Positions 51,312 to 55,043 of a stretch of 64,000 bases of DNA are shown here, piece after piece. The stretch spans positions 1,057,501-1,121,500 of the forward strand of contig NZ_CP113866.1 in NCBI RefSeq assembly GCF_026914305.1, read 5' to 3'. Below the pieces are notes generated by a model, which saw only the letters and a list, made by a program, of their open reading frames with translations, had not been told where the DNA came from and ran no database searches. This DNA is from Caldicellulosiruptor acetigenus (GTDB taxonomy: Bacteria > Bacillota > Thermoanaerobacteria > Caldicellulosiruptorales > Caldicellulosiruptoraceae). How positions within the stretch are numbered: the first letter of the stretch is position 1; each line of letters starts with the position of its first letter. A program made the position numbers and the translations under genes.

Positions 51312-52892
51312 ATGAATGTTAATTCAACAAGCTCTACAAGTTACACAAATCCCTACGATGCATACAAATATTACACAAGAATTGGTGGGCTTGCAAGCGG
51401 ACTTGACACAGATTCAATTATTCAAGGTTTAATGAGTGTTGAAAAGACAAAGTATAATAAACTCTATCAACAAAAGCAGCTTCTTGAATGGCAAAGACAG
51501 GATTATATGGATATGGCAAGTGCCATATCAAGCTTTAAAGATTATGTGTTCAACCTCAAACTTTCCAGTAACTTTGTAAAATATAAAACTGCTGGTGAAG
51601 CAGTAGATGCAGGGTATGTATCTGTTACAGGAACAGCCAATACTTTTGAAGGAAATTATCAAATAAAGGTTGAGCAGCTTGCAACCCAAGCGAATGCTGT
51701 TGTAAATGATCTGACAGTGATCACAAGAGATGCTCAAAACAACGTGAAGCTTCAGATTGATTTGACAGTTGATGGTTCAACTGTTACAAAGACAGTAGAG
51801 CTTACTTGGAATCCAGGGGATTCTGTAGCAACTTTTGGTGCTAATTTAGCGAAGGCAATAAATTCAGCGTTCAGTACTGATGGTAGCTTAAAAGCCTATT
51901 ATGACTCAACTTTAAATAAGCTTGTGATAACTTCTCAAAAAACTGGCAGCAGTGTTAGCTTTACTGTAAAAGATTTAAATAACAATAATACTGTAATAGC
52001 AAGTGGGACTGGTACAGATGCAAAAGCTTATATCAAGGATAGTTTTGGCAATGAGTCACAAGTACCTTCTTCAGCTACAAATACAATTAATGTATATGGT
52101 ATGAGTATTACTCTGAATAAAACGACTTATAATGCTCAAACAAACACATATGATTATAAATCATTTTCCATCTCAAAAGATGTTGATGCTATTGTAAACA
52201 ACATCAAAGAGCTTATAAACAAATACAATGAACTTGTTAGCAAGATATACAGCAAAATCACAGAAAAGAGAAACAGAGATTATCTGCCGCTGACAGAAGA
52301 ACAAAAGTCTCAAATGAAAGATACTGACATTCAAAAATGGGAAGAAGCTGCTAAAAAAGGGCTTTTATATGGTGACTCAATTTTATCAGGTTTTTTGAAC
52401 AATTTGCGTTATTACCTATACAAAGCAGTTCCAGGGCTTCCTTCTAATTTAGATACAATTTCAGAAGCGGGTATAGAAACGTATAGCTACTTTGAAAGCA
52501 AAGAAGGAAAGATTTATATAAAAGATGAAAGCAAGTTAAGACAGGCAATTTCAAATAATTTTGATGCATTTGTAAAGCTTTTTACATCAAGTGGTAGCGA
52601 TACAAACACCATTGAAGATGATGGAATTTTACAGCGTTTTTACAATATTGCTAATGATACTCTCAAAAAGATTTATGACAAAGCAGGCAAACCATATTTT
52701 ACAAGTTCTTATGATCCCAACAGTTCGATAGGAAAACAGCTGAGGAGTATTATAGACCAGATGAATGCAGAACAGGAAAGACTTCAGAAAATTGAAGATA
52801 GGTATTATCGTCAGTTTACCCAGCTTGAGAGATTGATTGCGCAGATGAACACCCAAAGTTCATGGCTTTCCCAGCAGTTTAGCGCAAAATAA
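51312..52892 (+). CDS. fliD: flagellar filament capping protein
   Basis: A protein of 526 residues. The N-terminal FliD domain (YTRIGGLASGLDTDSIIQGLMSVEK, then a coiled LLEWQRQDYMDMASAISSFKD) and the C-terminal coiled coil (MNAEQERLQKIEDRYYRQFTQLERLIAQMNTQSSWL, read in parts) are complete. FliD caps the filament and helps flagellin fold. It is normally followed at once by fliS; here a TnpB element lies between. Confidence 0.95.
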   Translation: MNVNSTSSTSYTNPYDAYKYYTRIGGLASGLDTDSIIQGLMSVEKTKYNKLYQQKQLLEWQRQDYMDMASAISSFKDYVFNLKLSSNFVKYKTAGEAVDAGYVSVTGTANTFEGNYQIKVEQLATQANAVVNDLTVITRDAQNNVKLQIDLTVDGSTVTKTVELTWNPGDSVATFGANLAKAINSAFSTDGSLKAYYDSTLNKLVITSQKTGSSVSFTVKDLNNNNTVIASGTGTDAKAYIKDSFGNESQVPSSATNTINVYGMSITLNKTTYNAQTNTYDYKSFSISKDVDAIVNNIKELINKYNELVSKIYSKITEKRNRDYLPLTEEQKSQMKDTDIQKWEEAAKKGLLYGDSILSGFLNNLRYYLYKAVPGLPSNLDTISEAGIETYSYFESKEGKIYIKDESKLRQAISNNFDAFVKLFTSSGSDTNTIEDDGILQRFYNIANDTLKKIYDKAGKPYFTSSYDPNSSIGKQLRSIIDQMNAEQERLQKIEDRYYRQFTQLERLIAQMNTQSSWLSQQFSAK

Positions 52893-52990
52893 TTGAAAGG
52901 GTGCAATAGTAGAAAATTTGTTTGTTGAGGAGGTCAAAACAGTTGAAATTAGTAGTAAAAAATGATATAATTTTAGTCGGATGACAATGA

Positions 52991-54514
52991 ATGTTATTAA
53001 CTATAAAGAATGTTAAAGAGCTACGTGCTATAAGAGGTGTTAAAGACATGCTAACCATCCAGGCTAAGCTGATTTTTGACAGCAGCGAGGATAAGCAGAA
53101 AGTATTAAACCTTATGAGAAAATGGTCGGCTTGTATGAGATATGCATACAAAAGGCTTTTAGAAGGACATAAGAGAAATGAACTCAAAAGACAGCTTCAG
53201 GGGATTTTCAACCTGAACTCCCGATACGTTGATGATGCGATAATGAAGTCGCAAAGTGTTAAAAAATCTTGCGAACAGAAGGGAGAAAATCCCAAAAAGG
53301 TAATCTTTGGTGGAAGAACGCTGTTTGAAAAGCTTCAAAAGAGGCATATAAACGGCAGGGCGTACAGGAAACTTCAGCTTGAGTGGCAGGAGAAGAGGAA
53401 AGGGAATCTGTACTCAAGGGGAGACAGGAGCAAGAAAGGGAATCTCAACACAAGGATTGAGATAGACGGAAACAGCACAAAACTCAGAATAAACGTAGAT
53501 GAAAGGGAGTATGTATATGCAATTATACGGCCTGGATGGGAAGTGAAAGGTGGAACGTACACAGACAGGAATCAACTTCTGCAGGCGATTGCCACCTCAG
53601 GAGAGCCCTATTCTGTTGAATTGAAGCTCAAAAACAGCAAGATATATGCTTATTTTACCGTTGAAGAGGTTTTCCCGAAAGTCAAGATAACAAGAGCAAA
53701 CGGAGTTATAGGGATAGATACGAACGCATATCCCAAACACCTGGCATGGGTAGAAACAGACAGCAGTGGACAATTTCTGAGCTACGGTGAGATACCAATG
53801 CCGGAGCTTGAGAGCGGAAACTTTGACAAGAGGGAGTATTACAGGTGGCAGTACGCTCACATGATAGTAGCAATGGCAAAGGAGAAACAAAAAGCCATAG
53901 TAATCGAGAATTTGGACATAAAGGACAGGGGCAGGAGAGGAGACTTTTCAGGTAGAAAATCAAGACGTATAAGGCACTATTTTGGGTACAGGTCACTTTT
54001 AGAGAAGGTAAAACTTTTGGCAAAGCGGGAAGGAATAGAGGTTATAGAAGCAGACCCGGCTTATACTTCGATAATAGGTATGCTGAAGTACGCGCCGCAG
54101 TTCATGGTAAGCAAGGATGTAGCGGCAGCGTATGTGATAGCAAGAAGAGGTCTTGGATTAAAAGAAAGGATACCGCACAACTACATGGAGCACCTCAGTA
54201 GTCTTGATGTAAACAGTTTGGAAGAACTGAAGGAACACGTGAAAAAGACGGTCAAGAACCCGAACGTTAGTAAAAGACAGCTCAGGGAGATAGACTGGGC
54301 GATAAAGATTTTACAAAGCTCTGGGAGTGAGCCAGGGAGGCTATCCGAGTCTCTGGATGGAACAAGCGAGGATAGTCACAGGAAATTATCCTGTAATCTC
54401 TGGCGAGTTCTCAGGGTAGCGGTGGTAACTCCACTCTCTCCTGAGAGGGTTTTAAGAGACCTCTCTGTCCTGAAACTGCTTCTGGTTTCAGGACAAGTGG
54501 GGAGACCCGGCTAA
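52991..54514 (+). CDS. tnpB: RNA-guided endonuclease TnpB, without zinc finger
   Basis: A protein of 507 residues in the long frame. RuvC residues are D243 (GVIGIDTNAYP), E306 (AIVIENLDIK) and D376 (SKDVAAAYVIARRG). The CxxC zinc finger usual between the second and third sites is absent; the segment reads DPAYTSIIGMLKYAPQ instead. The true start may be ATG 53048, the second methionine in MLTIQAKLIF. Residues from about 441 on are low-complexity and coincide with strong RNA hairpins, so they probably come from the guide-RNA scaffold overlap. Related TnpB proteins cut DNA next to a short motif to keep the element in place. Confidence 0.82.
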   Translation: MLLTIKNVKELRAIRGVKDMLTIQAKLIFDSSEDKQKVLNLMRKWSACMRYAYKRLLEGHKRNELKRQLQGIFNLNSRYVDDAIMKSQSVKKSCEQKGENPKKVIFGGRTLFEKLQKRHINGRAYRKLQLEWQEKRKGNLYSRGDRSKKGNLNTRIEIDGNSTKLRINVDEREYVYAIIRPGWEVKGGTYTDRNQLLQAIATSGEPYSVELKLKNSKIYAYFTVEEVFPKVKITRANGVIGIDTNAYPKHLAWVETDSSGQFLSYGEIPMPELESGNFDKREYYRWQYAHMIVAMAKEKQKAIVIENLDIKDRGRRGDFSGRKSRRIRHYFGYRSLLEKVKLLAKREGIEVIEADPAYTSIIGMLKYAPQFMVSKDVAAAYVIARRGLGLKERIPHNYMEHLSSLDVNSLEELKEHVKKTVKNPNVSKRQLREIDWAIKILQSSGSEPGRLSESLDGTSEDSHRKLSCNLWRVLRVAVVTPLSPERVLRDLSVLKLLLVSGQVGRPG

Positions 54515-54595
54515 AAAGGGCGTAAGTTCCTGTTTCTTGGGACAGGGGCTATGGCTTTCCCAAATACCGCCTGCTGGGGCTGGGAAAGTTTGAAT
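54320..54595 (+). ncRNA. candidate omega (right-end) RNA of TnpB element
   Basis: The 3' end of tnpB and its downstream flank hold nested hairpins: CCTGAAAC / GTTTCAGG (about 54470-54496), CCTGT / ACAGG (about 54530-54546) and CTTTCCCA / TGGGAAAG (about 54554-54588). TnpB guide RNAs are made from exactly this region, and the guide would start just beyond the right end, about 54596 onward. Borders are approximate and expression is unproven. Confidence 0.5.
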
Positions 54596-54617
54596 GGCGG
54601 ACTACAAATACCCCAGC

Positions 54618-54651
54618 TATCTAAACTGTACACTTTTGTACAGTTTAGATA
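54618..54651. repeat. perfect 34-nt inverted repeat before fliS
   Basis: TATCTAAACTGTACA (54618-54632), loop CTTT, TGTACAGTTTAGATA (54637-54651). The 15-bp stem is perfect, lies four bases before the fliS ribosome binding site AGGAAG and has no T tail, so it is not a terminator. It may be an operator, an mRNA structure controlling fliS, or an end of the nearby element. Confidence 0.75.
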
Positions 54652-54665
54652 ACCAGGAAGATTTT

Positions 54666-55043
54666 ATGGACGCAGCTGCAAGATATCAAGAAGAAGTAAT
54701 AATGACAAAGCCACCAGAGGAACTCACTTTGATGCTTTATGATGGATGCATAAGATTTATAAAACTTGCAATGCAGGCAATTGATGAAAAAAAGCTTGAC
54801 AAAGCAAATGAGAATATTATCAAGGCAGAGAATATCATCACAGAGCTCATGTCAACACTTGATATGAGCTATGAAATATCTAAAAATTTAATGAGCCTTT
54901 ATGATTTTGTTTACCGATGGCTCATTCAAGCAAATCTCAAAAAAGACAAAAAGTATTTGGAAGAGGCACTTGAGATTGTGCAGGATTTGCGAAACACCTG
55001 GGCAGAGGCAATAAAGATTGCAAGACAGCAGAAGAATAAATAA
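54666..55043 (+). CDS. fliS: flagellin export chaperone FliS
   Basis: A protein of 125 residues. ARYQEEVIMTKPPEELTLMLYDGCIRFIKLA, AENIITELMSTLDM and a helical C-terminus are the FliS pattern. ATG 54666, after AGGAAG at 5 nt, gives the usual length; an upstream start at 54594 would read through the palindrome. FliS binds flagellin C-termini before export. Confidence 0.94.
   Translation: MDAAARYQEEVIMTKPPEELTLMLYDGCIRFIKLAMQAIDEKKLDKANENIIKAENIITELMSTLDMSYEISKNLMSLYDFVYRWLIQANLKKDKKYLEEALEIVQDLRNTWAEAIKIARQQKNK

What the first reader, a model, noticed from the sequence alone, without database searches (positions are those of the whole stretch)
52940..54595. Solo TnpB without zinc finger separating fliD from fliS
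The RuvC D-E-D set is intact, but the CxxC finger is missing, and the last 65 or so codons coincide with strong hairpins of a likely guide RNA. The guide would derive from sequence just upstream of fliS. Insertion in an essential motility operon may also change fliS expression; some domesticated TnpB proteins regulate flagellar genes, which makes this location noteworthy.
Basis: partly seen in the sequence, partly recalled or inferred. Interest (0 to 1): 0.6.

Follow-up and report, generated by a model that had tools for sequence, protein, structure and literature searches.

The report
Transposon inserted at gene's ribosome-binding site
The gene between fliD and fliS is a small jumping gene (an IS607-type transposon that has lost its transposase), and comparing about 60 relatives shows that this family lands almost always in the few bases between a gene's ribosome-binding site and its start codon, so the guide RNA of its DNA-cutting enzyme is automatically copied from the start of the host gene.

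Summary
The TnpB is real: 507 aa, RuvC D243-E306-D376 intact, no zinc finger. The finger is absent from all 49 relatives examined, so it is a family trait, not damage. The element is IS607-type, not IS200/IS605. Related copies carry an IS607 serine transposase; here it is deleted and none was found elsewhere in the genome. True borders are 52934-54657. The right end lies inside the 'fliS' ORF; native fliS starts at 54666. The guide scaffold (~54318-54657) is supported by covariation and overlaps the last ~66 codons.

Main result: the insertion separates fliS's Shine-Dalgarno (GAGGAGG, 52927-52933) from its ATG. In 61 distinct insertions with both ends defined, 57 have GGAGG at the left junction, and 53 have a start codon with an open frame 2-14 nt after the right end, against 27% for GGAGG sites in nearby host DNA (P~1e-15). 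Empty sites in sister genomes show the GGAGG is host DNA. RAGATH-18 IS607 elements, whose published TAM is AGGAG, lean the same way. Predicted TAM is therefore a ribosome-binding site and the guide a translation-initiation region. No evidence of domestication: catalytic residues intact, 11 sister genomes uninserted, no second guide target.

The parts
52927..52933 (+). Native fliS Shine-Dalgarno GAGGAGG, now left of the element; predicted TAM; 52932-52933 is the GG crossover dinucleotide
   Evidence: Left flank; uninserted fliS loci have GAGGAGG or GAGGGGG 8-10 nt before the ATG
52934..54657 (+). IS607-family element, 1724 nt, tnpA-deleted
   Evidence: Ends conserved in about 80 copies
52943..52971 (+). 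Promoter-like TTGAAA-17-TATAAT in the left end, conserved in copies
   Evidence: 11 of 12 matches; copies; function not tested
52985..53047 (+). Scar of tnpA: its first codons joined to its tail; supplies the first ~19 residues of the TnpB ORF
   Evidence: Comparison with full-length and other tnpA-less copies; extent approximate
52991..54514 (+). TnpB ORF, 507 aa; conserved family start is Met20 at 53048; catalytic codons D243 at 53717, E306 at 53906, D376 at 54116; no zinc finger between the last two
54318..54657 (+). reRNA (guide RNA) scaffold, ~340 nt; helices 54318-54505 overlap the TnpB codons
   Evidence: transcription not tested
54567..54617 (+). Predicted pseudoknot: 54567-54571 with 54596-54600 and 54573-54579 with 54611-54617
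   Evidence: Pairs kept but almost invariant in 32 sequences, so covariation is uninformative
54618..54651 (+). Terminal hairpin of the right end
54658..54677 (+). Predicted guide, ~20 nt: AAGATTTTATGGACGCAGCT (fliS spacer, start codon, first codons); start may be off by 1-2 nt
   Evidence: Right flank of the element; guide length taken from PMC11061315; inferred
54666..55043 (+). Native fliS; the ATG at 54594 of the annotated ORF lies in the transposon

Best explanation
This is a non-autonomous, tnpA-deleted copy of an IS607-family transposon carrying a zinc-finger-less TnpB and a long reRNA. Shown by sequence: the element lies exactly between the fliS Shine-Dalgarno (GAGGAGG) and the fliS start codon, and family members in several genomes do the same at many unrelated genes. 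Inferred: an IS607 TnpA acting in trans recombined the element's GG ends with the GG of the SD; TnpB uses the SD (GGAG/GGAGG) as its target-adjacent motif; the reRNA reads through the right end so that its guide is the translation-initiation region of the host gene; the nuclease cuts uninterrupted copies of that site (sister chromosome after excision, or incoming DNA) so that repair restores the element. The SD is a convenient target: it leaves the host ORF intact and gives a guide from a gene start. The right end ACCAGG re-supplies only a weak SD, so fliS translation is probably lowered. TnpB is not expected to regulate fliS or other genes in trans.
For: IS607 TnpA in relatives. Sharp ends. 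GGAGG in 57/61 left flanks and start codon with ORF in 53/61 right flanks against 39/145 GGAGG control sites, P = 6.5e-16. Empty sites show the SD is host DNA, one identical to the joined flanks over the stretch compared. reRNA structure with 28 compensatory pairs. Catalytic triad intact. Published TAMs AGGAG/GAGGG for other IS607 TnpBs (PMC11061315). No second guide target with 2 or fewer mismatches in the genome.
Against: No direct evidence of expression, TAM or cleavage for this protein. The SD-start excess could reflect survival of harmless insertions rather than targeting. No IS607 tnpA was detected in the genome, so this copy may be immobile. Some insertions are not at gene starts.
Confidence: 0.75

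Rival explanations
1. The SD-start pattern is only survivorship: IS607 inserts at any GG or GGAGG, and only insertions that spare coding sequences are kept; TnpB and TAM play no part in it.
For: IS607 TnpA is described as having very little target specificity with a GG crossover (PMC4058570). Insertions inside coding GGAGG sites would break genes.
Against: GG alone is abundant (10621 sites in the control DNA), yet 57/61 left flanks carry GGAGG, which is present at about 1% of GG sites (145 sites); survival alone does not explain the GGAGG requirement. A TAM of AGGAG is measured for related TnpBs.
Confidence: 0.3
2. The element is a domesticated TnpB that regulates fliS or other flagellar genes (TldR-like).
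For: Location in a flagellar operon; TldRs regulate flagellin (PMC13418256).
Against: RuvC triad intact; insertion absent from 11 sister genomes; guide target is split by the element itself and has no second site with 2 or fewer mismatches; family members sit by unrelated genes.
Confidence: 0.03
3. It is a dead relic: the element no longer moves or cuts and will decay.
For: tnpA deleted; one full copy and one remnant in the genome; no IS607 tnpA detected elsewhere in it.
Against: The ORF is open where a number of relatives have stops; catalytic residues, predicted TAM, promoter-like site, reRNA structure and both ends are intact. Loss of tnpA is common in the family.
Confidence: 0.2
4. The GGAGG belongs to the transposon's left end rather than to the host; insertions are in fact at arbitrary places just upstream of genes.
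For: GGAGG is nearly constant at the left junction.
Against: Uninserted orthologous sites carry the GGAGG: G004 is identical to the joined flanks of L098 over the stretch compared, L119 orthologues have GGAGG at the junction, and sister fliS loci have the SD at the same spacing. Exceptions (GAAGG, AGAGG, GAGGG) exist.
Confidence: 0.03

Closest known systems
RAGATH-18 IS607 TnpB (ISFba1; Ren et al. 2024, PMC11061315)
   Same: IS607 TnpA-TnpB organisation, RuvC nuclease, reRNA at the right end, SD-like TAM (AGGAG/GAGGG measured there; GGAGG inferred here); right flanks also tend to begin at gene starts
   Different: No Rfam RAGATH-18 match here; reRNA ~340 nt and overlapping the CDS instead of independent of it; protein ~490-507 aa against 330-433 aa
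ISXfa1 IS607 TnpB (PMC10711439)
   Same: GG crossover, pseudoknotted reRNA, G-rich TAM (GGG)
   Different: Different TAM; direct sequence comparison not made
IS200/IS605 TnpB (ISDra2, PMC8612924)
   Same: RuvC nuclease, reRNA overlapping the end of the tnpB CDS
   Different: Y1 transposase and AT-rich TAM there; serine transposase and G-rich TAM here; zinc finger absent here
TIGR01765/TIGR01766 'tspaseT_teng' proteins of thermophilic Bacillota
   Same: Match above cut-off to this TnpB
   Different: Annotation models only; no function or target site attached

Membership tests
IS607 transposon family | Serine-recombinase TnpA with N-terminal HTH | tested here: met
   Present in full-length relatives, NF033518 above cut-off; deleted in the window copy
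IS607 transposon family | GG crossover at both ends, no longer target duplication | tested here: met
   Ends ...GG|element...CCAGG|; empty site identical to the joined flanks in G004 over the stretch compared
TnpB RNA-guided nuclease superfamily | RuvC D-E-D triad | tested here: met
   D243, E306, D376 invariant; TIGR01766 above cut-off
TnpB RNA-guided nuclease superfamily | Zinc finger between the second and third catalytic residues | tested here: not met
   Absent in the whole family; treated as a variable, not obligatory feature
TnpB RNA-guided nuclease superfamily | reRNA at the right end reading into the flank | tested here: inconclusive
   Conserved structure with covariation shown; transcript and processing not tested
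TnpB RNA-guided nuclease superfamily | RNA-guided DNA cleavage next to a TAM | not testable with these tools
   Needs biochemistry
RAGATH-18-associated IS607 TnpB | RAGATH-18 RNA downstream of tnpB | tested here: not met
   No Rfam match at gathering or E 5 at the locus, nor in this genome
TldR (domesticated nuclease-dead TnpB) | Inactivated RuvC | tested here: not met
   Triad intact

The most novel reading that the evidence does not exclude
A widespread class of IS607 TnpB transposons recognises the Shine-Dalgarno sequence itself as target-adjacent motif, so each insertion creates a guide against a host gene's translation-initiation region. The ribosome-binding site serves as a recurrent, ORF-sparing address with guides from gene starts, which could favour homing between strains and would make such loci natural starting material for RNA-guided repressors of gene starts.
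Probability: 0.55. Interest if true: 0.75.

Novelty: new variant of a known kind. Interest (0 to 1): 0.6.

Why it matters
IS607 elements have been described as inserting with little target specificity, and an AGGAG TAM has been reported without any mention of ribosomes in that paper. The pattern here joins the two: the TAM is the Shine-Dalgarno and the guide is the gene start. It accounts for where these elements sit, predicts guides genome-wide, warns that start-codon calls beside such elements (fliS here) can be wrong, and suggests how TnpBs could become RNA-guided repressors of translation-start regions. It also adds a zinc-finger-less TnpB with a long CDS-overlapping guide RNA from thermophiles.

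Tried and rejected
Rfam at gathering and at E 5: no credible RNA family at the locus. RAGATH-18 membership rejected. AlphaFold with a 3-sequence alignment gave pLDDT 48.5 and was not used for a fold search. PDB profile search: no hit. PADLOC calls the protein 'Csx1' at 2e-85; taken as a mislabelled model, because the NCBIfam, RuvC and transposon evidence all say TnpB. TldR-type domestication rejected. GGAGG as part of the transposon rejected. Two automatic left-end calls (L103, L149) were judged wrong and left out of the counts.

Full report
OBSERVATION. The window holds fliD (51312-52892), a 507-aa TnpB-family ORF (52991-54514) and a FliS ORF (54594-55043). The TnpB matches TIGR01765 and TIGR01766 above their cut-offs. 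RuvC residues D243, E306 and D376 are intact and invariant in a 17-sequence alignment. No CxxC finger lies between the last two catalytic residues here or in 49 full-length relatives: the finger was lost in the family, not in this copy.

BORDERS. Copies occur in 10 of the 11 sister genomes of the genus and in many genomes of a second genus, one of which matches an assembly named Caldanaerobacter subterraneus. Aligning about 80 copies gives sharp ends: left ...ACAGTTGA close to the junction, right TRACCAGG. The window element is 52934-54657 (1724 nt). Its right end lies inside the 149-aa 'FliS' ORF: a FliS search found the first ~20 residues alone at many places in the second genus, and those checked lie just after other tnpB copies. 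Native FliS starts at 54666, as in sister genomes.

WHAT IT IS. Full-length relatives (~2.2 kb) carry a 202-aa TnpA with MerR-type HTH and serine-resolvase domains that matches the IS607 transposase model. In the window copy, tnpA is reduced to a scar that supplies the first ~19 residues of the TnpB ORF. No such tnpA was detected elsewhere in the genome, so the copy must have moved before losing tnpA or with help from another TnpA. Several other ~1.7-kb copies in sister genomes are also tnpA-less. Mosaic origin: both tips of the window element are closest to second-genus elements (94% and 98%), whereas tnpB and the reRNA body are closest to its own genus (86-96%).

GUIDE RNA. Third-codon-position variability collapses from ~54300 on (cp3/cp12 ratio from about 2-4.5 to 0.6-1, with one segment back at 2.06). 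Window 54306-54657 folds at -153 kcal/mol, z = -6.4. Across 32 right ends the structure keeps 98.4% of cells paired, with 28 pairs showing compensatory changes, against 16.9 in shuffles and 2-9 in slid controls. A pseudoknot of two nearly invariant helices (54567-54571 with 54596-54600; 54573-54579 with 54611-54617) resembles the pseudoknot reported for TnpB/Fanzor reRNAs (PMC10711439), but covariation cannot test it. Transcription was not tested.

INSERTION SITE. At fliS the element sits between GAGGAGG (52927-52933) and AAGATTTT-ATG. In 61 distinct insertions with both ends defined, GGAGG lies within the last 11 nt of the left flank in 57 (49 exactly at the junction). A start codon with an ORF of at least 40 codons (30 where the fetched DNA ends) begins 2-14 nt after the right end in 53 (ATG in 42). 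Among 145 GGAGG sites in flanking host DNA the figures are 39 and 22 (Fisher P = 6.5e-16 and 1.2e-13). GGAGG is host sequence: G004 has an empty site identical to the joined flanks of L098 over the stretch compared, L119 orthologues have GGAGG at the junction, and uninserted fliS loci have the SD at about the same spacing. The element therefore separates Shine-Dalgarno from start codon, and the guide, read from the right flank, would cover spacer, start codon and first codons. Caveats: orthologous sites with small differences could be counted twice, and copies within a lineage share ancestry.

GENERALITY. IS607 elements with RAGATH-18 RNA have a measured TAM of AGGAG or GAGGG (PMC11061315), which is SD-like, although that paper never mentions ribosomes. 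In 29 distinct RAGATH-18-type right ends from other Bacillota, 21 have a start codon with ORF within 2-15 nt, against 20% of positions nearby. Against AGGAG sites alone (22/60) the excess is smaller. The window family is not RAGATH-18 by Rfam.

CONSEQUENCE FOR THE HOST. Anti-SD duplex energy upstream of the interrupted genes drops from a median of -11.8 to -4.1 kcal/mol (fliS -12.2 to -4.3). This is still better than when the last 5 nt of the right end are replaced by random host 5-mers (mean -2.9 against -4.5), because the right end ACCAGG supplies an AGG. fliS translation is probably reduced (inference). The left end carries a near-consensus promoter, 52943-52971.

MECHANISM. Shown: element anatomy, IS607 kinship, reRNA covariation, SD-start insertion pattern. 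Inferred: TnpA joins GG ends to a GG target; TnpB with its reRNA recognises a G-rich TAM plus gene start and cuts restored empty sites, favouring retention. Whether the SD preference comes from TnpA choice, TnpB-driven retention, or survival of harmless insertions cannot be decided here. No guide-like site with 2 or fewer mismatches exists elsewhere in the genome, so regulation in trans is unlikely. Flagellar TldRs are RuvC-dead (PMC13418256); this is not one by that criterion.

LITERATURE LIMITS. Searches of the open library found no paper joining IS607 or TnpB target sites to Shine-Dalgarno sequences. Subscription papers and supplementary files were not searched, so the link may be known elsewhere.

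Noticed in passing
window 52934-52985 and 54613-54657 against 53050-54612: The element is a mosaic: both tips match second-genus (Caldanaerobacter-type) elements while tnpB and the reRNA body match the host genus, as if the ends were exchanged as a matched pair.
   Followed up: partly
L162 around 1246: One relative is inserted in sequence that looks like a SAM riboswitch (GAAAGAGCCCGATGAAACCCGGCAACC right of the element); recognised by eye only.
   Followed up: no
G000:C1:2236980-2237132 (L002 1501-1653): A remnant of a related element ends abruptly at GCCAAGGAGG followed by host-like sequence, possibly an aberrant recombination at an internal GGAGG of the reRNA.
   Followed up: no
window 52991-54514: PADLOC-DB model PDLC01039 labels this TnpB family 'Csx1' at E 2e-85; probably a mislabelled model.
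   Followed up: no
G000 (L204-L211): The genome holds eight further TIGR01766 proteins of 377-424 aa, of other TnpB types.
   Followed up: no
L135, L136, L139, L140, L174 left ends: In genome G030 several copies have GGAGGTAGG at the left junction, suggesting a sub-lineage whose left end begins TAGG, shifted by 4 nt.
   Followed up: no
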